From: Collinsella sp. | Lineage (GTDB): Bacteria; Actinomycetota; Coriobacteriia; Coriobacteriales; Coriobacteriaceae | Assembly: GCA_019414645.1 (NCBI GenBank) | Contig: DXLP01000017.1 | Coordinates: 1 to 56,787, forward strand | Direction: 5' to 3' | Length of the DNA: 56,787 nt | Shown: in pieces, positions 24,102-56,787 of the stretch | Layout of the letters: the number at the start of each line of letters is the position of its first letter | Position numbering within the stretch: position 1 is the first letter of the stretch | Program-made: the position numbers and the translations under genes | Notes under the pieces: generated by a model | What the model was told of the DNA's origin: nothing | The model's database searches: none | Seen by the model: only the letters and a program-made list of their open reading frames with translations

Positions 24102-24178
24102 GCCCTATTAGCTCAGGGGATTAGAGCGTCTGCCTCCGGAGCAGAAGGCCGTTGGTTCGAATCCAACATGGGGCACCA
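24102..24178 (+). tRNA. tRNA-Arg (anticodon CCG), CCA encoded, prophage integration target
   Basis: Acceptor GCCCTAT pairs with ATGGGGC. The anticodon stem is TCTGC/GCAGA with loop CTCCGGA (anticodon CCG, reading CGG), the T-loop is TTCGAAT, and ACCA is encoded. The gene is intact. To its right everything is phage-like, and the serine recombinase gene on the opposite strand ends inside it. This indicates that the phage integrated into this tRNA and restored its 3' end. Confidence 0.92.
24113..24178. other. Probable prophage attachment site (attL) within tRNA-Arg
   Basis: The boundary between host (aro operon) and phage DNA falls in or just after the tRNA 3' half, and the integrase reading frame stops at 24113 inside it. 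The matching attR would be a direct repeat of part of this segment beyond the right edge of the window. The exact core cannot be fixed from one end. Confidence 0.5.
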
Positions 24179-25573
24179 TTCCAATTTTGCTCGAACCCGC
24201 TGGATGTCCAATCTGGCGGGTTCGCCCTTTTTATCGTAGTTCAGCGTGACCAGTATCTCGTCCTCCGAGACGACCGCCTGCCACACGAATGCCTTCAGCA
24301 GCGTCGCGTCGTCGAGTGCCGTCCCGCACTGCAGGAAGTCGGCGAAGCGCTCCGGGTCTATCCTCTCGTCCGTGATGGCCTCGAGGTCGTACCTCGCTCG
24401 CGCCTGCTGCTCCTCGAGCTCGGCTATGCGCTCGTTCACGCCCGGTGCTATCACGCCCTGCTCGATGGCGTTGAGGATGTTCCTCAGGCCCCTCTCGGCG
24501 GCCCTGAGCGAGTCCTCGGCCTGCATGCGACGCGCCCGCACCTCGGCCGTGTCCGCGCGCTCCGCTACCATGTTGGCTATCTGCAGCGCCTCGCCGCGGT
24601 CGCCGAGCAGCCCGCGCAGCGCCGAGGCTATGGAGCCCTCGAGCTCCTCGCGCCTGATGTTGCGGACGCACGACCCTGGGCAGCTGTAGTACTCGTACTT
24701 CACGTTGTTGCGGCCCCTGCCGCTCACGCCCTGCAGGTTCCTGCCGCATTCCGCGCACAGCGCCGTCCCCGCGAGGGCGAAGTCGCCCCAGTTCTCGCTC
24801 GAGCGCTGCTTGCGGCACTTGATTCCCTGGACCTCCATGAACGTCACCTCGTCCACTATCGCCGGCATCCCGCCCTCGCGGACGATGCCTCCCCACTCGT
24901 ACCTTCCCGTGTACCTGCGGTCACGCAGCATCTGCTGCACCATTGCTTGGCCGCACGGGTTGCCCTTGCGCGTCCTGAGGCCGCGCCGCGCGAACTCGCG
25001 CGCTATCGCGTTCATGGACATGCGCTCCAGCCTCAGCGCGAAGGCCTCGCGCACCCACGCCGCCTGCGCCTCGTCGACCTCGTACTCGTCGTCCTCGTTC
25101 CTGCGGTATCCGAAGATGCGCACGCCGTTGGTCTTGCACTTGAGGGCGTTGCCCTCCATTCCGCGCTTGGTCCTGATGGCGGTCTTCCTCGACTCGCAGG
25201 CGGCGAGCCCCTCGAGCAGCTTCTCGTAGATGATGCCCTCCGGGCTGTCGGGTATCTGCTCGAGCGCCGAGACCAGCTTGACGCCGTGCGCGGCGAGCTC
25301 GCGCTTGTATATCGGCGCGTCGTACTCGCCGCGGCTGAAGCGGTCCATCATGTAGACGAGGACGATCTCGCTCTCGCCGGCGTTGGCTATCATCCGCTGG
25401 AACTCGGGGCGGTCGTCGGTGCGCCCCGACACGGCGCGGTCGCAGTACTCCGCCGCGACCTCGTAGCCCTCGCGCGCGCACCACTCGCGGCAGACGCGCA
25501 GCTGGTCCTCGATCGAGGCCTCGCGCTGCCTGTTGCACGAGAATCTCGCGTATATCACTGCCTTCTTTGGCAT
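24113..25573 (-). CDS. int: Large serine recombinase (phage integrase)
   Basis: A 486-residue large serine integrase. The catalytic domain (residues 1-150) starts KKAVIYARFSCNRQREASIE, with nucleophile Ser12, and has the DRFSR motif. A recombinase domain with GYRRNEDDEYEVDEAQAAWV follows, then a zinc ribbon (C-A-E-C...C-P-G-S-C) and a long coiled coil. The last 20 or so residues (CPMLDSNQRPSAPEADALIP) are the antisense of tRNA-Arg(CCG), so the current C-terminus was created by integration and may differ in the free phage. Such enzymes join attP and attB; excision normally needs a directionality factor. ATG at 25573. Confidence 0.93.
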   Translation of the reverse strand: MPKKAVIYARFSCNRQREASIEDQLRVCREWCAREGYEVAAEYCDRAVSGRTDDRPEFQRMIANAGESEIVLVYMMDRFSRGEYDAPIYKRELAAHGVKLVSALEQIPDSPEGIIYEKLLEGLAACESRKTAIRTKRGMEGNALKCKTNGVRIFGYRRNEDDEYEVDEAQAAWVREAFALRLERMSMNAIAREFARRGLRTRKGNPCGQAMVQQMLRDRRYTGRYEWGGIVREGGMPAIVDEVTFMEVQGIKCRKQRSSENWGDFALAGTALCAECGRNLQGVSGRGRNNVKYEYYSCPGSCVRNIRREELEGSIASALRGLLGDRGEALQIANMVAERADTAEVRARRMQAEDSLRAAERGLRNILNAIEQGVIAPGVNERIAELEEQQARARYDLEAITDERIDPERFADFLQCGTALDDATLLKAFVWQAVVSEDEILVTLNYDKKGEPARLDIQRVRAKLEWCPMLDSNQRPSAPEADALIP

Positions 25574-46954: not shown

Positions 46955-47304
46955 CGGACTTCCGCCAGTACTACGGCATCGACCTCCCGCTCGAGGACGG
47001 ACCGGACGACCTCCGGCGCGCCGCCCTCCTGTGGGAGCAGCTTCCCAAGGAGTCGAGGTGCGCGCGCCGCATGTACCCGGAGCTCAAGTGGAGCGAGGAG
47101 ACGTACATGCTCTGGCGCATCGAGCACCAGCTCAGGAGCCTCGCGTGGGGGCTGAGCGACAAGAAGCACCGGCCGCCGCAGGAGCCGCAGCCGCTCAAGA
47201 CGCCCGGGCAGCTCGCGGAGCTCAAGAGGCACCAGCGCAACGCCCTCGCGAACAGGGCGGAAATCGACGAGATTCTAGGATTAGGAGGACGGGATGGCGA
47301 CTAG
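46661..47304 (+). CDS. Frameshifted tail assembly chaperone (gpGT-like fusion)
   Basis: Ribosomes slipping back one base at 46900-46906 would read on from CTC at 46906: LPGFVLELEGNRAEVVADFR, then a helical domain ending EIDEILGLGGRDGD at 47304, giving about 214 residues. The second frame has no good independent start before residue-rich sequence begins, which is why it needs the shift. The ratio of gpG to gpGT controls tail assembly in lambda-like phages. Confidence 0.82.
46900..46906 (+). promoter_or_regulatory. -1 ribosomal frameshift site A AAA AAC
   Basis: In the chaperone frame the codons are GCA AAA AAC, so the heptamer is X-XXY-YYZ with X=A, Y=A, Z=C, a strong slippery sequence. The -1 frame stays open for 132 codons downstream. 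Confidence 0.85.
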
Positions 47305-49765
47305 CGTAGGCTCGGCATGCATCACGCTCATGCCGTCCATGAAGGGCTTCGCCGGCAGTATCTGCTCGGAGTTCGGCGACACGGGCTCCAAGGCCGGAAA
47401 GTCATTCGGCGACTCGATGACCTCCGGCGTGGACGGCGGGGTCAAGCGCTCCAGCGGGCTGCTGAGCGGGCTCGGCACCGTCGCAAGGGGCGTGGGCACC
47501 GTCGCCGCGGCTGGCATGGGCGCGCTCACCACGGCGGTGACCGCAATCGGCGGCGCTGCGGTATCCGCATACGCCGACTACGAGCAGCTGGTCGGCGGCG
47601 TCGATACGCTCTTCGGCTCCGCGTCCGGCAAACTGCAGGGGTACGCCGCGGAAGCGTACAAGACGTGCGGCATGAGCGCAAACCAATACATGACCCAGGC
47701 GACCAGCTTCGCCGCATCGCTCGTGAGCTCGTGCGGCGGCGACGTGGCGAAGGCCGCCGAGTCCGCCAACACGGCGATGGGCGACATGGCGGACAACGTC
47801 AACAAGATGGGCTCGGACATGGCCGACGTCCAGAACGCGTACCAAGGTTTTGCCAAGCAGAACTATACGATGCTGGACAACCTGAAGCTGGGCTACGGCG
47901 GCACGAAGTCCGAGATGGAGCGACTCATCGCGGACGCCAACAAGCTGCGCGCGGCGCAGGGCAAGACCGCCGACCTCACCATCGACAGCTACGCCGACGT
48001 GGTCGAGGCCATCCACACCGTGCAGTCCGAGATGGGCATCACCGGCACGACCTCCAAGGAGGCCGCGACGACCATCTCCGGCTCCATCGGCATGGCCAAG
48101 GCATCATGGGAGAACTTCCTCACCGGTCTGGGCCGAGACGACGTGGACTTCTCGCAGCTCACCGAGCAGCTGCTCACGTCCGTCGGCGCCGTGGCCAAGA
48201 ACATCGCGCCGCGCGTCGCGCAGATCGGGCAGGGCATCATCAAGGCGCTCCCAGCGGCGCTCTCCGGCATCGCGTCGGTGCTCACGCCCATCGTGTCCGA
48301 GGCGCTCGCCACGGCGTGGAACATCGCCGTCGGTGCGCTCGCCGGCATCGGTATCAAGCTGCCGAAGGTGGACTCCTCGCAGATCTGCTCTGCGCTTCAG
48401 GCCATCCTGGGCGTGGCCACGTCCGTCGGTAACGGCATCAAGGCGGCAATCGGGTTCATCGCGCCGCTCATCGCGCCAATCGGCACGGCTCTGCTCAACA
48501 TCGCGCAGGCCGTGCTGCCGGTGCTCTCCACCGGCATACAGGTGGTGCTCGGCATCGTGCAGGCGCTGTCGCCGGTCATCGGCTTCCTGGTCGGTGTCAT
48601 CGCGGACGTGATGACGACCGTCTCGCAGCTCGTCGCCATCGCCATGCCCGCCGTGCAGTCCGTGCTGTCCGCCGTGCTGGCGGCGATGCCGCTCATCCAG
48701 GGCGCTATTCAGGTGGCGATGGGCATCATCTCCGCCGTCTGGCACGCGGTCTGGCCGGTGATCTCCGCTGTCCTGTCTGGCGTGATGGATGCAATCTCCA
48801 CTGCCGTCCAGGTCGCGATGGCCGTGGTGCAGACAGTCATCTCCACGGTCACCGCCGCGATAAGCGGCGACTGGGATACGGTCTGGAACACAATCAAGTC
48901 GGTAGCCGAGCTCGTCTGGTCGCAGATTGAGTTCGCCGTGCGAGCGGCCATCGGGGTCGTCGAGTCCGTGATAACGTCCACGCTCGATGGAATCAGCTCG
49001 ATTTGGTCAAGCGTGTGGGACACCGTCCGCGATTTCGCCGAGGTGGTCTGGGGACGCATCAAGTTTGCCGTCAACTCGGCGATAAATCAGGTCAGCGGCG
49101 TGATCAGCTCCGTGCTCAACAGCATCAGCTCCACGTGGTCGAGCATGTGGGGGAGCATCAAGAGCGCCTGCTCGTCCATCTGGGAGGGCATCAAGAGCGC
49201 GGCGTCCAACGGAATCAACTCCGTCTACAGGACCGTCACGAGCATCAAGGGCAAGATCACCGGATTCTTCTCGGGTGCGCGCAACTGGCTCTTCAACTCC
49301 GGCAAGTCGATACTCAACGGCCTGAAGGACGGCATCATGTCCGCTATCGGCTCGGTGACCTCGGCGGTCTCCGGCGCAGTCTCCAGAATCCGCTCCTTCT
49401 TCCCGTTCTCGCCGGCAAAGGTCGGCCCCTTCTCCGGGCACGGCTACACGACCTTCTCAGGCAAGGCCCTCATGCAGGGCTGGGCGCAGGGCATCGGCTC
49501 CGGCACCGGCACCGTGGTCTCCGCAATCAGCGGCGCCATGGACACCGCGCAGGGGATGCTCTCGACGGGCCTGACCGTCGCGCCGTCCGCGGTCTACACG
49601 CCTGCGCGTCCCGAGGAGGATTCCGACGACGCCCTCGCCGGCATCCTGTCCGTCCTCGAGCAGATCCGGGACAAGGACGGAAACCTGTACATCGACTCGG
49701 AGCGCGTCTCCTCCGCCATCGCGATGCGCGGCAGGCACACGCTCGCCGCAAGGGGGTTCGCATGA
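47294..49765 (+). CDS. Tail tape measure protein
   Basis: An 823-residue protein, the longest of the tail cluster except Tal. A conserved N-terminus (STLMPSMKGFAG-like start, GALTTAVTAIGGAAVSAYAD), then many hydrophobic helical repeats (residues 320-500) and Trp-spaced helices (WDTVWNTIKSVAELVW). C-terminal FFPFSPAKVGPFSGHGY is typical of Gram-positive phage tape measures. Its length sets tail length and the hydrophobic part helps DNA pass the membrane. Overlaps the chaperone fusion end. Confidence 0.93.
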   Translation: MATSVGSACITLMPSMKGFAGSICSEFGDTGSKAGKSFGDSMTSGVDGGVKRSSGLLSGLGTVARGVGTVAAAGMGALTTAVTAIGGAAVSAYADYEQLVGGVDTLFGSASGKLQGYAAEAYKTCGMSANQYMTQATSFAASLVSSCGGDVAKAAESANTAMGDMADNVNKMGSDMADVQNAYQGFAKQNYTMLDNLKLGYGGTKSEMERLIADANKLRAAQGKTADLTIDSYADVVEAIHTVQSEMGITGTTSKEAATTISGSIGMAKASWENFLTGLGRDDVDFSQLTEQLLTSVGAVAKNIAPRVAQIGQGIIKALPAALSGIASVLTPIVSEALATAWNIAVGALAGIGIKLPKVDSSQICSALQAILGVATSVGNGIKAAIGFIAPLIAPIGTALLNIAQAVLPVLSTGIQVVLGIVQALSPVIGFLVGVIADVMTTVSQLVAIAMPAVQSVLSAVLAAMPLIQGAIQVAMGIISAVWHAVWPVISAVLSGVMDAISTAVQVAMAVVQTVISTVTAAISGDWDTVWNTIKSVAELVWSQIEFAVRAAIGVVESVITSTLDGISSIWSSVWDTVRDFAEVVWGRIKFAVNSAINQVSGVISSVLNSISSTWSSMWGSIKSACSSIWEGIKSAASNGINSVYRTVTSIKGKITGFFSGARNWLFNSGKSILNGLKDGIMSAIGSVTSAVSGAVSRIRSFFPFSPAKVGPFSGHGYTTFSGKALMQGWAQGIGSGTGTVVSAISGAMDTAQGMLSTGLTVAPSAVYTPARPEEDSDDALAGILSVLEQIRDKDGNLYIDSERVSSAIAMRGRHTLAARGFA

Positions 49766-50460: not shown

Positions 50461-53292
50461 GTGCGAATTGACGTATACACGTGGCAGGACGCCTACGTAT
50501 CGACAATCGGCCCCGAGGAGCTGCTCTCCCTCACCCATACCGACGAGCTCAACGGCGAGGACAGCGTGGACATCGTCACGACCTTCGCGCTCAAGCAGGG
50601 CTACCGCCTCGTGTGGGCCGACCGCCTCGGCAAGGTCCACGAGCACGTCTGCCAAGACCCCAAGGGCCTCCACGCCGGAGGCGATACGGTCTACACGGAC
50701 ACGGCTATCAACTCAATCTGCGAGACGTACGGCGACTATATCGAGGACAAGCGCCCCTACGGCTACGGCTTCTTGCAGGCGCTGAATGTCTGCCTTGGGC
50801 CGACCCGCTGGACCGCCGGAAAGGTCGACCGGACCGGCACCGTCGACAAGGGCCTGACCTTCTACCACACCTCGGCGCGCGAGGCGCTCCAGTCAATCTT
50901 GGAATGCGGCGGCGAGCTTGAGACTGAAATCACCGTATCCGGCGGAAAGGTGACCTCTCGCAGGGTGGGCATCCGCTCGCACCGAGGCGCGAAGGGCGGC
51001 CACCGCCGGTTCACCTACACCAAGGACCTGGCATCCGTCTCCCGCACCGAGCACTACGGGGCGATCACCGCCTGCTACGGCTACGGCAAGGGAATCGAGA
51101 CCGACACGGGCGGCTACGGGCGCAAGCTGACGTTCGGCGACATCAACAACGGCAAGAACTACGTGGAGGATGCGACCGCGCTCAGGCTGTACGGGCGACC
51201 CGACGGCAGGGGCGGGCGCGCGCACGTGTTCGGACAATATGAAAATTCAAATTGCGAGGACGCGGCAACCCTGCTCGCCGAGACCCGCGCATACCTCGAC
51301 TCCCGCAAGGAGCCGGGAATGACCTACGAGGCCGACGCCGTCGACCTCATGCAGTTCGGGCGCGACTGGGAGGGCGTCGCCGTGGGCGACGACGTGCAGA
51401 TCGTCGACACGTGCTTCTCGCCGGCGCTGCGCTGCGAGGGCCGCGTGACCAAGCTCGTGACCGACGAGCTCGGGGGCGCCATGCGCGTGACGCTCGGCAA
51501 CATAACCGAGACCATGACGGACATGTGGCTGTCGCAGCAGCAGAAGCTGTCGAGCCTGTCCAAGCGCTCGTCCAGCTGGGACGTGGCGGCATCCACGCCG
51601 CCGTCGTACCTCCAGCAGGTCATGGACAGCATGAATGCGCAGTTCAACCTCGCGGGCAACAGCTACGTCCACACGAGCTTCGAGCGCGGCCTGATCTTCG
51701 GCTCCGTGCCCCTCGACGCGGACGGCCGCTCGACGACCGGCGACGGCATGGCCATGCAGCTGTGCTCCCAGGGCTTCCGCATCGCCGACGGCTGCAAGGC
51801 GGACGGCTCGTGGGACTGGCACACATTCGGAACGGGAAAGGGCTTCTTCGCCGAGTTCATCTGCTTTGGCACGATGCTCGGCGACTTGATCAAGGCCGGC
51901 ACCATTCAGGACAAATCGGGCAAGAACTATTGGAACCTCGACGAGAGTGAGGTCCATCTAGGCCCCGGCGCCAAGCTCGACGGCAAGGACATCGCGACGA
52001 CGAACACCGTGGTCAAGTCGACCGTGAAGCTCTACGCGAAGAATCAGTCCGACAGCGTGCCACCAATTAATGCACAGAACCCAGAGCTGGGATGGTCCGA
52101 GGACCTCCCGCAATGGTCGAACGGATACTTCGTCTGGTCGATGGAGCGCGTCACCTACGGCGACGGCAGCGTCACCCACACGGCGCCGGTGCTGGAGGCC
52201 GCGTACAACAAGGCCTACCAGAGCGCACACGACCTCACAGGCTCGCTCAATGGCCTCGACACGACGGTGCAGGACCTCGCCAAAGACGGTGTGGTGACCG
52301 AGGCGGAGAAGGCGGCGGTCAAGAAGGCCAAGCAGGACGTGGACAAGGAGCGCGAGGAGCTCACGAGCCAGTACAACGCGCTGAAGTCGAACAAGGCCCT
52401 CAGTGCCCAGTTCCTCTCGTCCGTCCTCGGCCCCCGCTACACCAAGGCCTTCGGCACGACCGACGAGGGCGGCACGTACGGCGCCTACGCCGACAAGGTC
52501 GACAAGGTGCTCATGTGCAAGACCGCCGAGGAGCTCAAGGCCGCCATGTACGAGTACGACGCGGCCTACGGAGCCTACTCGAGCGCGGTCAAGGACTACG
52601 CCGATGCCGCGACCGGGGCGCGCCACGCCATCGAGCAGAAGAACGCGTCGGACTACGCCGACGGCATCCTTAGCGCCTACGACGAGCAGATGGACCAGAA
52701 GGCCATCTTCGACCGCCTGACCAACGGCGGCGCCGAGCAGGGCCTCTACATGAGCAACAACAGGGTCTACCTCAACGCGAGCTACGTGGCCACCGGTACC
52801 ATCGCCGACGCCAAGGGCCGGAACACGTGGAACCTCAAGGAAGGCGTGCTGACGACCAACTACATGACGGCGAAGAACATCACGGCGACCGGAAGCTTCA
52901 CCGGTGGAAACCGCAGCAGCGGGTACGCCATGGAACTCGACTCGAGCGGGAAGCTGGCTGGGTTCAAGGACGGCACGCAGTACGGATACATCGAATGCTC
53001 CTCAACGTCACATGACATCGACAATCCGTCGATTATCTACCACGGACTGCAGCTGCAGGGACAGGGCGTCGTGCGAGTCTCGACCCCGAGGCTCAGTGTG
53101 AGCGGCAGCGCCGACACGAGCGTCACGACGTGGTCGGGCCTGACGACCAAGGTCGGAGCGGCATACCATCCGCTTTACACGGAGAACGGCAAGAAATATT
53201 TCAACGACCAGTCCCAGACATCGTCGGTGCTCGAGTTCAAGAACGGCCTGCTGATCGGCGTGTCGACCATGCCGTCCGGGTGGAGCGGATAA
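50461..53292 (+). CDS. Tail tip / tail-associated protein (Tal-like)
   Basis: A 943-residue protein. The first 370 residues match the prophage tail (Tal/gp27-like) domain: SLTHTDELNGEDSVDIVTTF, HEHVCQD, TYEADAVDLMQFGRDWEG. The middle has a coiled coil (EKAAVKKAKQDVDKEREELT). The C-terminal beta region (from about residue 760) has GTIADAKGRNTWNLKEG repeats, resembling IQDKSGKNYWNLDESEV near residue 485, a repeat seen in structural fibres. GTG start directly after the Dit stop. It forms the trimeric spike and leads toward host adhesion proteins. Confidence 0.82.
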   Translation: MRIDVYTWQDAYVSTIGPEELLSLTHTDELNGEDSVDIVTTFALKQGYRLVWADRLGKVHEHVCQDPKGLHAGGDTVYTDTAINSICETYGDYIEDKRPYGYGFLQALNVCLGPTRWTAGKVDRTGTVDKGLTFYHTSAREALQSILECGGELETEITVSGGKVTSRRVGIRSHRGAKGGHRRFTYTKDLASVSRTEHYGAITACYGYGKGIETDTGGYGRKLTFGDINNGKNYVEDATALRLYGRPDGRGGRAHVFGQYENSNCEDAATLLAETRAYLDSRKEPGMTYEADAVDLMQFGRDWEGVAVGDDVQIVDTCFSPALRCEGRVTKLVTDELGGAMRVTLGNITETMTDMWLSQQQKLSSLSKRSSSWDVAASTPPSYLQQVMDSMNAQFNLAGNSYVHTSFERGLIFGSVPLDADGRSTTGDGMAMQLCSQGFRIADGCKADGSWDWHTFGTGKGFFAEFICFGTMLGDLIKAGTIQDKSGKNYWNLDESEVHLGPGAKLDGKDIATTNTVVKSTVKLYAKNQSDSVPPINAQNPELGWSEDLPQWSNGYFVWSMERVTYGDGSVTHTAPVLEAAYNKAYQSAHDLTGSLNGLDTTVQDLAKDGVVTEAEKAAVKKAKQDVDKEREELTSQYNALKSNKALSAQFLSSVLGPRYTKAFGTTDEGGTYGAYADKVDKVLMCKTAEELKAAMYEYDAAYGAYSSAVKDYADAATGARHAIEQKNASDYADGILSAYDEQMDQKAIFDRLTNGGAEQGLYMSNNRVYLNASYVATGTIADAKGRNTWNLKEGVLTTNYMTAKNITATGSFTGGNRSSGYAMELDSSGKLAGFKDGTQYGYIECSSTSHDIDNPSIIYHGLQLQGQGVVRVSTPRLSVSGSADTSVTTWSGLTTKVGAAYHPLYTENGKKYFNDQSQTSSVLEFKNGLLIGVSTMPSGWSG

Positions 53293-53295
53293 GAG

Positions 53296-53712
53296 ATGAA
53301 AGGACAAGAAGGAATGGAAGCAAGCAAGAAAATCGTCGTGGGCTACGCCGTCCACGACATCATCGGAAACAACGAACAGTGCCTGACGGAGTACGACCCG
53401 GACGTGCTCCGGCGCGCCGAGGACGCCGGACTCATATTTGTCGCCCAGTACGACGACGGCTCGCGCGAGGTCGTCAAGGCCGCGGACGTCCGCAAGCCAG
53501 ACCCCACGGTCAACGGCATCCCGCTGGCGACCGCCGGGTACGTCGACAAGCGCACGGCTGCCACCGTGGCGTGCTTCGATGCGCTCTCGGCCATCGTCGA
53601 CCCGCAGCCAGCCACGGCCGACGAGACGGGGGAGGGGACTGAGGCCGTCGACCCGGTCGAGGCCTTCAGGTCCGCGCTCGCCGCCCTCAAGGCGCTGGAG
53701 GCCACGGAATGA
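53296..53712 (+). CDS. Hypothetical tail-region protein (138 residues)
   Basis: KKIVVGYAVHDIIGNNEQCL at the N-terminus, acidic and Ala-rich C-terminus (AFRSALAALKALEA). Sits between Tal and the BppU-like gene, so probably structural. ATG at 53296 or 53314. Confidence 0.55.
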   Translation: MKGQEGMEASKKIVVGYAVHDIIGNNEQCLTEYDPDVLRRAEDAGLIFVAQYDDGSREVVKAADVRKPDPTVNGIPLATAGYVDKRTAATVACFDALSAIVDPQPATADETGEGTEAVDPVEAFRSALAALKALEATE

Positions 53713-54446
53713 TCAACCACGCCATATCACTCGACATGCGCAAGCGCCCGGGCACCGTCCCGCAGCGCGTCACCGTGCGTCGGGGCGAGACCCAGACCCA
53801 GCGGGTGACCGCGACACTCACCACGGACGGCGCCGCCTACACGCCGACCTACCAGTCAGCGCGCCTGTGCGTGCTCCATTCCGACGGCACGTGGGCTCGC
53901 TGTGCCGCCACCGTCGGCACGGTATCGGTGAGCGCCACGCTGGCGCCGGAGGCCGTCAACGGCACCGGCAGGTGCAGGCTGGCATACTTCGAGTTCTACA
54001 GCGCCAACGGGGCCTCCGAGACGACCGAGGACTTCGCGCTCGTCATCCTGGGAAATGTGGACGGGACAACAGGGCCTGCCGTCAGCTACGACCAGGAGCT
54101 CGACGAGCTCTATAGGAAGTGGAGCACTGAGCTATCTCGGCTCGGTCAATCCGCGTTCGATGCGGCATCCGCCGCTAGCGGTGCGGCGTCGAGGGCCGAT
54201 GCGGCGGCAAGCGCGGCATTGCAGATCGCGAACGCGGCGGCGCAGGGCGCCGCCGGCGAGTCCGACATCGCCGAGCTGCGCCGCCAGAACGGCAAGCTCG
54301 CGACGATGCTCGCCGACGCGACAGACAAGTTCATCTACATGGACGGCACGGTCTACTGCCCTGCCGGCAAGGCGTCGGTATCCGGGGACACGGTGACGTT
54401 CGGCAGCACGTGCTCGGTATCGGGCAGCACGGTAACCCTTTCCTAA
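53709..54446 (+). CDS. BppU-like baseplate / fibre anchor protein
   Basis: 245 residues. Residues 1-125 form a beta domain (PQRVTVRRGETQTQRVTATL, CRLAYFEFYSANGASETTED) like the N-terminal domain of baseplate upper proteins. A coiled coil follows (SRADAAASAALQIANAAAQG, ELRRQNGKLATML), then a beta tail. Such proteins hold receptor-binding proteins at the tail tip. The DGR target gene follows nine bases later with AAGGAGGATAA. Confidence 0.7.
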   Translation: MINHAISLDMRKRPGTVPQRVTVRRGETQTQRVTATLTTDGAAYTPTYQSARLCVLHSDGTWARCAATVGTVSVSATLAPEAVNGTGRCRLAYFEFYSANGASETTEDFALVILGNVDGTTGPAVSYDQELDELYRKWSTELSRLGQSAFDAASAASGAASRADAAASAALQIANAAAQGAAGESDIAELRRQNGKLATMLADATDKFIYMDGTVYCPAGKASVSGDTVTFGSTCSVSGSTVTLS

Positions 54447-54455
54447 GGAGGATAA

Positions 54456-55364
54456 ATGGCAAATGCAAAGACGCTGGTCGTAGGCGGCCAGCCGCTCAAC
54501 GTCATCGACGATACCGCGCGCAGCAACGCGCAGACGGCGCTCAACAACGCCGAGTACAACCGCCAGGGCCAAATCGGCAAGTACGGCGGGCAGAACATCG
54601 CCACCATCCTGGCGGGAGAGATCGGCAGCGGCAGCGTGTACGACGCGCTGCATAAGCGCATCGCCGCCGCGAACTTCGCAGGCCTGCGCGTGAGCGACTA
54701 CCTGGACGTGCCCCTCGTGAGCGCATCCGCCGTCGCCGCCCAGCAGTCCGTGCGCTTCCTGCTGGCGCACATCGACCCGTACCTTTACTGCGGCGACAAC
54801 AGCAAAGGCCACCACATCGCCTTCGTGGCCTCCGCGCCCATCGCCGTGGCCAAGACCGTGACCGGCGTTGCCAACGACAGCTTCCTGATGTGGAACACGA
54901 CCAACACGAACCAGGGCACCGCCGACCAGAAATGCCCCTACCCCAACAGCAACCTCAAGGCGTGGGAGACGGCCTTCGAGGCGTGCCTGCCCGAGGGGCT
55001 GACCAAGTACCTGCTGACCCAGCGCGTCCTGCTTGAGGAGCGTTACAGCGCCAGCGGCGCGCTCAACGACTCCAACTCGTGGAGCTGGCAGGATATCGGC
55101 AAGGTGTTCTCGCTGTCCGAGATGGAGGTGTACGGCTGCCCCGTGTGGGGGACGAAGGGCTACAGCGTGGGCTTCGACTGCCAGTGGGACCTGTTCCGCG
55201 ACACCGCGCACCGAATCAACGGAAGTCGGTGCACTTGGTGGTTGCGTTCCGTCATGGGTGGCTCCTCGTCCGACGTGTGCTGCGTCAGCTACAACGGCAA
55301 TGCCGGCTGCAATTCGGCGACGCACGTCTGGGTTCGCCCCCGCCCCGGCTTCCTCGTCGGCTAG
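54456..55364 (+). CDS. DGR target protein: tail-tip protein with variable DUF6273/C-type-lectin-like C-terminus
   Basis: 302 residues. The N-terminal ~100 residues (NVIDDTARSNAQTALNNAEY, RVSDYLDVPL) probably attach it to the tail. The rest matches DUF6273, with FSLSEMEVYG, WDLFRDTAHRI and the C-terminal TWWLRSVMGG...VWVRPRPGFLVG. This is the W-W-L-R-S to R-P-x-F pattern of the formylglycine-like C-type lectin folds used by DGR targets. Residues 257-299 are the variable region; changed codons affect residues 257, 259, 260, 273, 278, 279, 284, 285 and 290. It likely binds host receptors. Confidence 0.88.
   Translation: MANAKTLVVGGQPLNVIDDTARSNAQTALNNAEYNRQGQIGKYGGQNIATILAGEIGSGSVYDALHKRIAAANFAGLRVSDYLDVPLVSASAVAAQQSVRFLLAHIDPYLYCGDNSKGHHIAFVASAPIAVAKTVTGVANDSFLMWNTTNTNQGTADQKCPYPNSNLKAWETAFEACLPEGLTKYLLTQRVLLEERYSASGALNDSNSWSWQDIGKVFSLSEMEVYGCPVWGTKGYSVGFDCQWDLFRDTAHRINGSRCTWWLRSVMGGSSSDVCCVSYNGNAGCNSATHVWVRPRPGFLVG
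55225..55353 (+). repeat. DGR variable repeat (VR), 129 bp
   Basis: Aligns with TR at a constant offset of 738 bases, with no gaps. Eleven differences, at 55225, 55231, 55234, 55272, 55288, 55290, 55305, 55306, 55309, 55323 and 55349, all opposite an A in TR. Seven are A to G, three A to C and one A to T. The last 29 bases are nearly free of A, with a 24-base identical block (55325-55348) that would serve as the initiation-of-homing part. Confidence 0.96.
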
Positions 55365-55392
55365 CCAGCCGAGTGCTCTATACTCTGCTTTT

Positions 55393-55417
55393 AGGCGACC
55401 GCCTTGCGCGGTCGCCT
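55393..55417 (+). repeat. Hairpin/cruciform after VR
   Basis: AGGCGACCGC (55393-55402) and GCGGTCGCCT (55408-55417) form a perfect ten-base stem with loop CTTGC, 39 bases beyond the end of VR. Hairpins at this place help target recognition in known DGRs. Confidence 0.75.
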
Positions 55418-55420
55418 CCT

Positions 55421-55443
55421 GCCCGCGAAGCGGGCCGTTTTTT
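55421..55443 (+). terminator. Terminator-like hairpin after the target gene
   Basis: GCCCGC, loop GAA, GCGGGC (55421-55435), then CG and six Ts (55438-55443). Probably ends target-gene transcription, so avd may be expressed at a lower level or from another promoter. Confidence 0.7.
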
Positions 55444-55468
55444 CCGCCAGTTTCCCCAGGAGGTGCAC

Positions 55469-55939
55469 GTGAGCGGCGTCTACCAGCGCAACCGCGAGGT
55501 GTCCGAGTACAAGTTCTTCACACAGGCCATCGCCATCCGCGTGGAGGTCAACAAGCTGATGGCGTCCTCCTCAGTAGTGCCCAAGGCCTACAGGCTGCTG
55601 AACGCGGTGCCGACCGTGGAGACGGCGCGCAGCATCGTGTACAACGTCAACCGCGCCGACTGCTTCTACCCCAACACCTCGTTCAACGCGCTGGAGAGGA
55701 AACGCTACCTGACGCTGGCCATAGCTGACTGCGAGCAGCTGATGCTGGACATGCAGTGCCTCATGGATATCGGCCTGCCCGTGAACGCCAACCGCTTCGA
55801 GGAGCTGGCGGGAATGGTCGAGGAGGAGATCAAGCTGCTGAAGGGCGCACGCAAGAACGTGCGCGTGACGGGCAAGAAGTCCACCGAGGAGCGCATAGCC
55901 GAGGCCGAGGCCGAGCTAGAGCGCCTGCGTTCGCTATAA
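55469..55939 (+). CDS. avd: DGR accessory variability determinant (Avd-like)
   Basis: 156 residues, a basic four-helix-bundle type protein: VSEYKFFTQAIAIRVEVNKL, VPKAYRLLNAVPTVETARSI, NALERKRYLTLAIADCEQLM, RFEELAGMVEEEIKLLKGAR. Avd forms a pentamer that binds the reverse transcriptase and the TR RNA and is required for mutagenic cDNA synthesis. The GTG at 55469 is chosen because AGGAGG ends five bases upstream; the larger open frame is an overlap of the target gene. It ends 24 bases before TR, as expected for a DGR. Confidence 0.85.
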   Translation: MSGVYQRNREVSEYKFFTQAIAIRVEVNKLMASSSVVPKAYRLLNAVPTVETARSIVYNVNRADCFYPNTSFNALERKRYLTLAIADCEQLMLDMQCLMDIGLPVNANRFEELAGMVEEEIKLLKGARKNVRVTGKKSTEERIAEAEAELERLRSL

Positions 55940-55940
55940 T
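55935..55940 (+). promoter_or_regulatory. TATAAT box just upstream of TR
   Basis: A perfect -10 sequence overlaps the avd stop, in a very GC-rich setting. It could start the TR RNA about 16 bases before TR. No -35 match is present at 16-18 bases. Confidence 0.35.
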
Positions 55941-55962
55941 GGGCAGCGGTCGCGCCTTGTTT

Positions 55963-56091
55963 ATCGGTACAATTGGTGGTTGCGTTCCGTCATGGGTGGC
56001 TCCTCGTCCAACGTGTGCTGCGTCAACAACAACGGCAATGCCAACTACAATTCGGCGACGAACGTCTGGGTTCGCCCCCGCCCCGGATTCC
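55963..56091 (+). repeat. DGR template repeat (TR), 129 bp
   Basis: Non-coding template copied by the reverse transcriptase into VR. It has 24 adenines; 11 are changed in VR and 13 are not, while none of the 105 other bases differs. Read in the VR frame it offers AAC, AAT and TAC codons at the exposed positions, the typical design in which A mutation reaches many residues without making stop codons from AAY. The 3' end diverges from VR at 56092. Confidence 0.96.
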
Positions 56092-56303
56092 CTTACTGCC
56101 AGACCGAGTAGGCCCCAGGGCCGAAAGCAGAGCGCGGAGAGGAAGGAAGGCGCGACCATCGGGCATGCGCCCGTAAATACGCACCCCGCGAGGGTGGCCG
56201 GACGCTGCTTGCATGGCGCGGCGCTCCGTGGCTTCGCCGCGTTTCATGGCCATACCTCAAGCGGCTGTCAGAGCCACATTGCAAGCCGTGCGGGGTGCTC
56301 TCT
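56092..56303 (+). other. TR to reverse transcriptase spacer
   Basis: 212 bases with no credible gene. In known DGRs this spacer RNA is needed to prime and position cDNA synthesis. It is very GC-rich with several possible stems; none was singled out. Confidence 0.4.
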
Positions 56304-56787
56304 ATGAACTCAGAGCAAAGAAGGGCCGCACGCCGCAAGCGCCGCGAGGAGAAGCGGGCCAAGGCAAAGGCCGAGCGCGTCAAGGCGTGCACGCTTGAGA
56401 CCGTGGCCGACCTTAACAGCCTGTGCAAGGCTTCAAAGCAGGCCGCGCGGGGCGTCATGTGGAAGTCGTCCACGCAGAGGTACATGAGAAGCTACCTGCG
56501 CAACGCCGTCCTGTCCCGCCGCGACCTTTTGGAGGGCCGCGACATATGCCGGGGCTTCATACGGTTCGACCTATGGGAGCGCGGCAAGCTGAGGCATATC
56601 AGCGCCGTGCACTTCCCCGAGCGCGTGGTGCAGAAGTCGCTGTCGCAGAACGCGCTCGTGCCCGCGATCGTGCCCACCCTCATAGCCGCGAACTCCGCGA
56701 ACATAAAGGGGCGCGGCACCGACTACGCCCTGAAGCTGCTCAAGCGCCACCTGGCCGACCACTGGCGGCGGCATGGGCGCGAGGGCT
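56304..56787 (+). CDS. DGR reverse transcriptase, N-terminal part (cut by window end)
   Basis: The frame from the ATG at 56304 stays open to the last base, 161 codons. A basic start (RRAARRKRREEKRAKAKAER) is followed by the early reverse-transcriptase region of DGR/group-II-like enzymes: YMRSYLRNAVLSRRDLLEGR, KLRHISAVHFPERVVQKSL with the family's R-x-V-Q-x-x-L, then IAANSANIKGRGTDYALKLL, the conserved N-S-x-x-x-x-G-R-G-T-x-x-A motif. The catalytic Y-x-D-D block should lie about 60-100 codons beyond the edge. It would copy TR RNA with adenine-directed errors. A GTG three codons earlier is an alternative start. Confidence 0.9.
   Translation, partial: MNSEQRRAARRKRREEKRAKAKAERVKACTLETVADLNSLCKASKQAARGVMWKSSTQRYMRSYLRNAVLSRRDLLEGRDICRGFIRFDLWERGKLRHISAVHFPERVVQKSLSQNALVPAIVPTLIAANSANIKGRGTDYALKLLKRHLADHWRRHGREG

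What the first reader, a model, noticed from the sequence alone, without database searches (positions are those of the whole stretch)
54456..56787. A diversity-generating retroelement in a Coriobacteriia-type prophage
Seen: equal-length VR and TR (129 bp), an Avd-type gene between them and a reverse transcriptase N-terminus after TR. Known: this order and content define DGRs such as that of phage BPP-1. Inferred: the prophage rewrites its tail-tip protein to change host range. It would be an attractive system for studying receptor switching in gut actinobacteria and phages.
Basis: partly seen in the sequence, partly recalled or inferred. Interest (0 to 1): 0.96.

Follow-up and report, generated by a model that had tools for sequence, protein, structure and literature searches.

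The report
Tail-rewriting retroelement in a Collinsella prophage
A prophage, likely of the gut bacterium Collinsella, carries a cassette whose template repeat differs from the tip of a predicted tail gene only at template adenines, so a reverse transcriptase encoded beside it likely rewrites that tip, and the RNA between template and enzyme gene matches the Rfam family RT-2.

Summary
VR 55225-55353 and TR 55963-56091 differ at 11 of 129 positions, all TR adenines. A gene with a predicted Avd-like four-helix fold lies between them. An RT gene starts after TR and runs off the window; 5 Collinsella loci continue it to YMDD. Across 8 Collinsella VRs, pairwise differences are 262 of 476 at template-A columns and 7 of 2352 at other TR-invariant columns. 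The target ends in a predicted C-type-lectin domain.

It is a diversity-generating retroelement: a new member of a known kind. (1) The TR-RT spacer is Rfam RT-2 RNA (143.6 bits). All 22 RT-2 matches in 396 Coriobacteriia genomes have an RT frame after them and a repeat pair before them; in 21 at least 98% of non-adenine letters match. (2) The hairpin after VR has a 5-nt CTTGC loop, not BPP-1's 4-nt GRNA; in 70 loci such hairpins occur only at VRs. (3) The 3'-most mismatch is a near-fixed VR-C/TR-A boundary mark, not mutagenesis. Activity and host-range change are untested.

The parts
24113..25573 (-). Integrase (likely serine type: also hits a DNA-invertase family), left side of the prophage; its end overlaps a tRNA-Arg (24102-24178 +)
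   Evidence: phrog_95 integrase E 1.1e-93, phrog_125 DNA invertase E 1.5e-22; tRNA by ARAGORN
47294..49765 (+). Tail tape-measure protein
   Evidence: phrog_58 E 8.5e-99
50461..53292 (+). Prophage tail endopeptidase / tail-tip type protein
   Evidence: Pfam PF06605 E 2.1e-20; phrog_12312 E 3.3e-99
53709..54446 (+). BppU-N-type protein
   Evidence: Pfam PF10651 E 4.4e-05, 23.7 bits against a cut-off of 23.1; no PHROG hit
54456..55364 (+). DGR target gene (302 aa), C-terminal DUF6273 / predicted C-type-lectin domain
55225..55353 (+). Variable repeat VR
   Evidence: 11 mismatches to TR, all at TR adenines
55335..55348 (+). 14-bp G/C-only run identical in VR and TR, followed by C (55349) in VR and A (56087) in TR
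   Evidence: sequence; like the (GC)14/IMH of BPP-1 (passages of PMC3240598)
55393..55417 (+). Target-site hairpin: 10-bp stem, 5-nt loop CTTGC, 39 bp after VR
55421..55445 (+). Intrinsic-terminator-like hairpin with T run, separate from the CTTGC hairpin
   Evidence: 2 overlapping sites found, mean 1.4 in shuffles
55469..55939 (+). Avd-type accessory gene (156 aa, GTG start), predicted four-helix bundle
55963..56091 (+). Template repeat TR
56094..56318 (+). RT-2 RNA (Rfam RF03077), structured spacer from TR into the first RT codons
   Evidence: 143.6 bits, full model 1-222; covariation in the clade
56181..56189 (+). 5' arm of the RT-2 closing helix; pairs with 56290-56298, which holds the GGGG just before the RT start
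   Evidence: helix 2: 100% of cells paired, 6 of 9 pairs with double changes
56304..56787 (+). Reverse transcriptase gene, N-terminal part, cut by the window end
   Evidence: open frame; relatives complete with YMDD

Best explanation
The right end of the window holds a phage-type diversity-generating retroelement (target gene with VR, Avd-type gene, TR, RT-2 spacer RNA and the start of an RT gene) that likely rewrites the lectin-like tip of a predicted tail protein. Predicted steps: the TR-plus-spacer transcript folds; its RT-2 part recruits RT and Avd and primes cDNA synthesis; RT copies TR with errors opposite adenines; the cDNA replaces VR up to a boundary in the G/C-only run before the VR-C/TR-A site, helped by the CTTGC-loop hairpin after VR. 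Eight codons (259, 260, 273, 278, 279, 284, 285, 290) encode a residue other than the template's, all of them AAY or TAC in TR. Shown here: the sequence parts, the adenine bias within and between strains, the conserved RNA fold and the hairpin's link to VR. Inferred from BPP-1: RNP assembly, priming, homing and receptor switching.
For: All 11 VR/TR mismatches are at TR adenines (P 2.8e-8 for 9 of 9 without the near-fixed site). Between strains: 262/476 comparisons differ at TR-invariant A columns against 7/2352 at TR-invariant non-A columns. RT complete with YMDD in L004-L008; the RT profile A1 (8 relatives) hits the BPP-1 DGR RT 8ub7_A best among PDB sequences, E 2.9e-17. Accessory fold is Avd-like. 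Target lectin fold; DUF6273 in 25 of 25 targets aligned, about half of those that one search listed. Spacer is RT-2 RNA, with 25 of 38 pairs doubly changed and covariation 0.393 against 0.132 shuffled. BPP-1 as positive control gives 19 of 19 mismatches at A, loop GAAA, and its spacer is Rfam Phage_DGR.
Confidence: 0.95

Rival explanations
1. The cassette is a decayed or silent DGR: the parts remain, but in this strain RT no longer works and VR is frozen.
For: G001, the nearest held genome, keeps VR and hairpin but carries a deletion from the Avd-type gene into the RT C-terminus (5-nt shared CGCGC at the junction), removing TR and the RT core. The window does not show its RT core.
Against: In the window the Avd-type ORF, TR, RT-2 RNA and 161 RT codons are intact, and the 7 related Collinsella VRs differ from it at template-A columns (sequences printed).
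Confidence: 0.04
2. The repeats arose by duplication and drift, and the RT belongs to another class (group II intron-like, retron or defence RT).
For: NCBIfam hits of P0001 to group II RT, retron St85 and Drt5 models (44.6, 23.6 and 21.9 bits), far under their cut-offs of 300, 235 and 550.
Against: Adenine-only mismatches, Avd fold, lectin target, best PDB sequence match to the BPP-1 DGR RT.
Confidence: 0.005
3. The CTTGC hairpin is an ordinary transcription terminator and not part of DGR targeting.
For: It lies shortly after the target stop codon; many terminators are GC-rich hairpins.
Against: The T run follows a second hairpin at 55421-55435. All 27 CTYGY-loop hairpins (stem 7 or more) in 70 loci lie within 75 bp after a VR and none elsewhere in 717,687 bases on either strand. 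26 of 40 such pentamers near VR have 8/8 stem pairs, against 0 of 2485 elsewhere. Some loci are near-copies (L107, L108).
Confidence: 0.12

Closest known systems
DGR of Bordetella phage BPP-1 (mtd-avd-TR-brt)
   Same: Gene order target-Avd-TR-RT, adenine-confined mismatches (19 of 19 in the control), Avd fold, GC-only run and hairpin after VR, structured spacer RNA between TR and RT.
   Different: Hairpin loop CTTGC (5 nt) instead of GAAA/GRNA (4 nt); spacer is Rfam RT-2 (222-position model) instead of Phage_DGR (127); RT motif 4 GSEPNQ in the Collinsella relatives instead of GSLTSQ; target has DUF6273, and no sequence link to Mtd was tested.
DUF6273-target DGRs of Faecalibacterium phages (PMC11792537, passages read) and tentaclins (PMC10743442, passages read)
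   Same: VR in a DUF6273 / C-type-lectin domain of a phage protein.
   Different: Here Collinsella and other Coriobacteriia. 'Collinsella' does not occur in the main text of either; 'Coriobacter' and 'Actinobacter' were looked for only in the second and do not occur.
Rfam RF03077 RT-2 RNA and RF03022 Phage_DGR
   Same: The window spacer is a full-length RT-2 match; RF03022 sits at the same place in BPP-1.
   Different: Rfam's name for RT-2, as printed, gives no DGR role; the two are separate Rfam families.
Global DGR survey, clades 1-6 (PMC8144416, passages read)
   Same: Adenine bias across clades; clades 1, 4 and 6 mostly from viruses of gut bacteria.
   Different: This locus was not placed in those six clades here; 'Actinobacter' does not occur in its main text.

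Membership tests
Diversity-generating retroelement | TR/VR pair with mismatches confined to template adenines | tested here: met
   11 of 11; between strains 262/476 against 7/2352
Diversity-generating retroelement | RT with catalytic YxDD beside TR | tested here: inconclusive
   Cut by the window end; YMDD in L004-L008, 5 of 5
Diversity-generating retroelement | RT sequence nearest to DGR RTs | tested here: met
   Profile A1 (8 relatives, not the cut window RT): best PDB hit 8ub7_A, DGR RT, E 2.9e-17; next a group II maturase E 3.2e-08
Diversity-generating retroelement | Target ends in a ligand-binding (C-lectin) domain carrying VR | tested here: met
Diversity-generating retroelement | GC-rich inverted repeat after VR | tested here: met
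   10-bp stem at 55393-55417; the loop departs from the GRNA consensus of PMC3240598
Diversity-generating retroelement | Mutagenic retrohoming | not testable with these tools
   Needs culture and VR sequencing
Avd (accessory protein) | Four-helix bundle of the Avd fold between target and TR | tested here: met
Avd (accessory protein) | Sequence match to Avd models | tested here: inconclusive
   Window protein: none. Of 37 aligned proteins (window included) 15 match phrog_3206 Avd, 1 matches Pfam bAvd, 5 match 23S_rRNA_IVP
RT-2 RNA (RF03077) | Score over the gathering cut-off of 40 bits, full model | tested here: met
   143.6 bits, 1-222

The most novel reading that the evidence does not exclude
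RT-2 RNA, an Rfam family known to me by name only, is the protein-binding and priming scaffold of the template RNA in a large DGR lineage. In its Collinsella-like branch that lineage uses its own target code: a CTTGY-loop hairpin and a VR-C/TR-A boundary base, distinct from the GRNA code of BPP-1. DGRs would then fall into classes with separate RNA scaffolds and matched target hairpins.
Probability: 0.5. Interest if true: 0.6.

Novelty: new member of a known kind. Interest (0 to 1): 0.45.

Why it matters
It gives Collinsella, a common gut actinobacterium, a set of related, integrated DGRs (RT relative in 9 of 43 genomes of the genus, one of them the deleted G001 copy) in which strain-to-strain VR variation can be read directly. 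It ties an Rfam RNA to a concrete place and likely job next to an RT, so DGRs could be found by their RNA alone. It also offers a second hairpin loop class to test how the machinery recognises its target; PMC12875486 (passages read) calls the homing step incompletely understood.

Tried and rejected
Considered and rejected: chance repeats; a group II intron or retron; the CTTGC hairpin as terminator. CTTGY as a universal DGR loop: rejected. In the 28 distinct VRs found through the RNA core in viral contigs only 4 have it, 5 have GRNA and 19 have others or none (four of the 28, L241, L251, L308 and L322, overlap earlier loci). On the RT tree (69 rows, window not included because its RT is cut; L008, whose stem has one mismatch, added to the group by hand) CTYGY needs 7 changes (13.8 in shuffles, 0 of 500 as low), so it is clustered but not of one origin. 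The VR-C/TR-A mark is likewise not universal: L046, L047 and L052 have C in both repeats, and in the second set the script found the mark in 21 of 28.

BPP-1 and the RT-2 loci share the letters CTNCTTGCATGG (28 of 28 rows of A4; 12 with the exact CTTCTTGCATGG of BPP-1), but in BPP-1 they straddle the TR end (2881-2893) and in the window they start at 56205, 114 nt after it, so I draw no homology from them. My first test for BPP-1 returned False because the stretch was cut too short. 25 of 70 loci lack CTTGCATGG within 330 nt after TR.

Led nowhere: RT of L035 in viral contigs (none); Pfam and PHROG for the window's accessory protein; Foldseek alone for the lectin domain (VIA was clearer); papers on RT-2 RNA (0 papers; capped listings, no title linking it to DGRs; passages of PMC10589994 and PMC8040213: nothing on it). 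The paper that I recall as the source of RT-2 is not held, so whether it already suggests a DGR role is unknown. PMC4159848 and PMC12629997 (term searches of the main text) do not name Collinsella.

Full report
WHAT IS THERE. The window is a chromosome segment whose left part carries ordinary genes and whose right part, from an integrase ending on a tRNA-Arg, is a prophage with terminase, portal, capsid, tape measure and tail genes. The host is inferred: the nearest matches of the cassette are Collinsella chromosomes, RT N-terminus identity 92-95%. The window's own assembly is not held. The cassette lies at the end of the tail genes: target gene 54456-55364, VR 55225-55353, a hairpin, an Avd-type gene 55469-55939, TR 55963-56091, a 212-nt spacer and the start of an RT gene.

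THE REPEATS. VR and TR are 129 bp each, 738 apart, with 11 mismatches, all at TR adenines. In the 128-bp core without the near-fixed last site, 9 of 9 mismatches in 127 sites fall on the 22 adenines (P 2.8e-8). Eight Collinsella-type VRs (window, L001, L004-L008, L029) were compared with the 7 TRs available. At 17 columns where every TR has A, 262 of 476 pairwise comparisons differ; at 84 TR-invariant non-A columns, 7 of 2352 differ, all from one site in L005. At 22 columns where TRs differ among strains, 280 of 616 differ, so the template itself also changes over time. Within strains, L005 has 1 and L007 has 2 non-adenine mismatches; the other 5 have none.

BOUNDARY. A 14-bp G/C-only run (55335-55348) is identical in both repeats, then VR has C and TR has A, then similarity soon ends. 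One search found 71 VR/TR pairs; I dropped one (the L003 minus strand, an echo of the plus-strand pair), leaving 69 plus BPP-1. The selection required at least 75% of mismatches at adenines, so these rows do not test the bias itself. The script printed the C/A difference in 65 of 70 rows. By eye I take L047 out (C in both repeats; the script caught a later site), which gives 64 of 69 without BPP-1; in L065, L066 and L069 the script printed a later site than the one seen. Not showing it: L046, L047 and L052 (C in both), L074 and L184 (not in register). At other mutated adenines VR has C in 203 of 910 cases. In a second set found through the RNA, the script saw it in 21 of 28. In this clade the site is therefore not copied from the template; it likely marks where transferred sequence stops, in keeping with the (GC)14 boundary mapped in BPP-1 (passages of PMC3240598).

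SPREAD.

THE SPACER IS RT-2 RNA. Rfam RF03077 covers 56094-56318 at 143.6 bits, cut-off 40. A hand-picked 28-row alignment of the nearest clade (27 distinct rows) supports the fold: 38 pairs, 25 with changes on both sides, 96.5% of cells paired, covariation 0.393 against a shuffled mean of 0.132 (0 of 500) and at most 0.090 when slid. The structure was derived from the same alignment, which favours it against the slid control. Of 26 loci scanned, picked from those found through their RT, 21 have RT-2 over the cut-off; L078, L035, L140, L175 and L185 do not. The reverse test starts from the RNA. In 396 genomes of the class there are 22 RT-2 matches in 19 genomes and none in 14 control genomes; fewer genomes have RT-2 (19) than an RT relative (35), so not every related RT has it. 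All 22 have an RT-like frame with a YxDD-type motif after them. A strict repeat finder saw an adenine-biased pair in 17 of 22; a scan in which template A may match anything found a repeat just upstream in all 22: in 21, 98-100% of non-adenine sites match; the exception L212 matches at 91% with only 4 of 10 mismatches at A. I kept the 36 with RT-2-like flanks; 29 of 36 have a repeat pair with at least 97.8% of non-A sites matching, and the 7 misses all have the core within 1303 bases of the upstream end of the held DNA. 23 of the 29 also show an RT-like frame in the held DNA, and 5 of the 29 overlap earlier loci. Of the 29, I sent 17 to Rfam; 17 of 17 are RT-2. BPP-1 has another family, RF03022 Phage_DGR, at the same place. 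I conclude that RT-2 in these sets is the DGR spacer. That it binds RT-Avd and primes cDNA is inferred from BPP-1 (introduction of PMC12875486, passages). The closing helix pairs 56181-56189 with 56290-56298, which holds a GGGG 8 bases before the RT start codon; folding would likely hide the RT ribosome site, so template and messenger use may exclude each other (inference).

THE HAIRPIN. PMC3240598 (passages) reports 7-10-bp GC-rich stems with 4-nt GRNA loops, 4-34 bp after VR, in phage DGRs. Here the stem is 10 bp, 39 bp after VR, with loop CTTGC. In 70 loci (717,687 bases) CTYGY-loop hairpins with stems of 7 or more occur 27 times, all within 75 bp after a VR, and nowhere else on either strand, while 131 other 5-nt-loop hairpins lie elsewhere. 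Tested without requiring a stem, and without BPP-1: 26 of 40 such pentamers near VR have 8 of 8 stem pairs, against 0 of 2485 elsewhere; 12 different 7-nt stem arms are used. The loop is clustered on the RT tree but not of one origin, and other loops are common in the wider RT-2 lineage.

A LOCKED COPY. G001 carries a prophage end 96% identical over 1630 bases in which a deletion joins Avd-type codon 54 to RT codon 291 of the L006 numbering, removing TR and the RT core but keeping VR and hairpin. If it is not an assembly error, its VR is likely frozen.

KNOWN AND NEW. The system is a DGR. DUF6273 lectin targets are known in Faecalibacterium phages and tentaclins (passages of PMC11792537 and PMC10743442). 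Of 4 held papers with both 'diversity-generating retroelement' and 'Collinsella', 2 were listed and neither title concerns Collinsella DGRs (listing only). No held paper contains the whole-word phrase 'RT-2 RNA'. The publication that I recall as its source is not held, so priority for the RT-2 link is open.

Noticed in passing
L001 2514-3038 (G001:C4); L038: In the nearest held genome a deletion with 5 nt shared at the junction fuses the Avd-type gene in frame to the RT C-terminus (174 aa), removing TR and the RT core; VR and hairpin remain.
   Followed up: partly
L005 6156-9206 (+) and 14711-16486 (-); L036: One C. aerofaciens contig holds two DGRs facing each other, RT ends about 5.5 kb apart, each with its own RT-2 RNA (L207, L221), likely two adjacent prophages; cross-talk between one TR and the other VR is possible but untested.
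   Followed up: partly
L007 and L008: Two DGR cassettes on two contigs of one strain (BSD2780120874b), with different TRs.
   Followed up: partly
L116 7366-7595: A second RT-2 RNA downstream of the first RT in the same viral contig, suggesting a second cassette.
   Followed up: no
L169 5645-5681: Rfam abiF RNA (RF03085, 43.1 bits) near a DGR in a viral contig.
   Followed up: no
window 24102-25573: A likely serine-type integrase whose 3' end overlaps a tRNA-Arg; such integrases are, from recall, less often tied to tRNA sites.
   Followed up: no
window 56205-56216; L148 2881-2893: BPP-1 and RT-2 loci share CTNCTTGCATGG, but at different distances from the TR end; significance unclear.
   Followed up: partly
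L035 (G008:C2): A more distant Collinsella DGR (RT 32% identical) with 20 of 21 or 21 of 22 mismatches at A, hairpin loop ATTC and no RT-2 match over the cut-off.
   Followed up: partly
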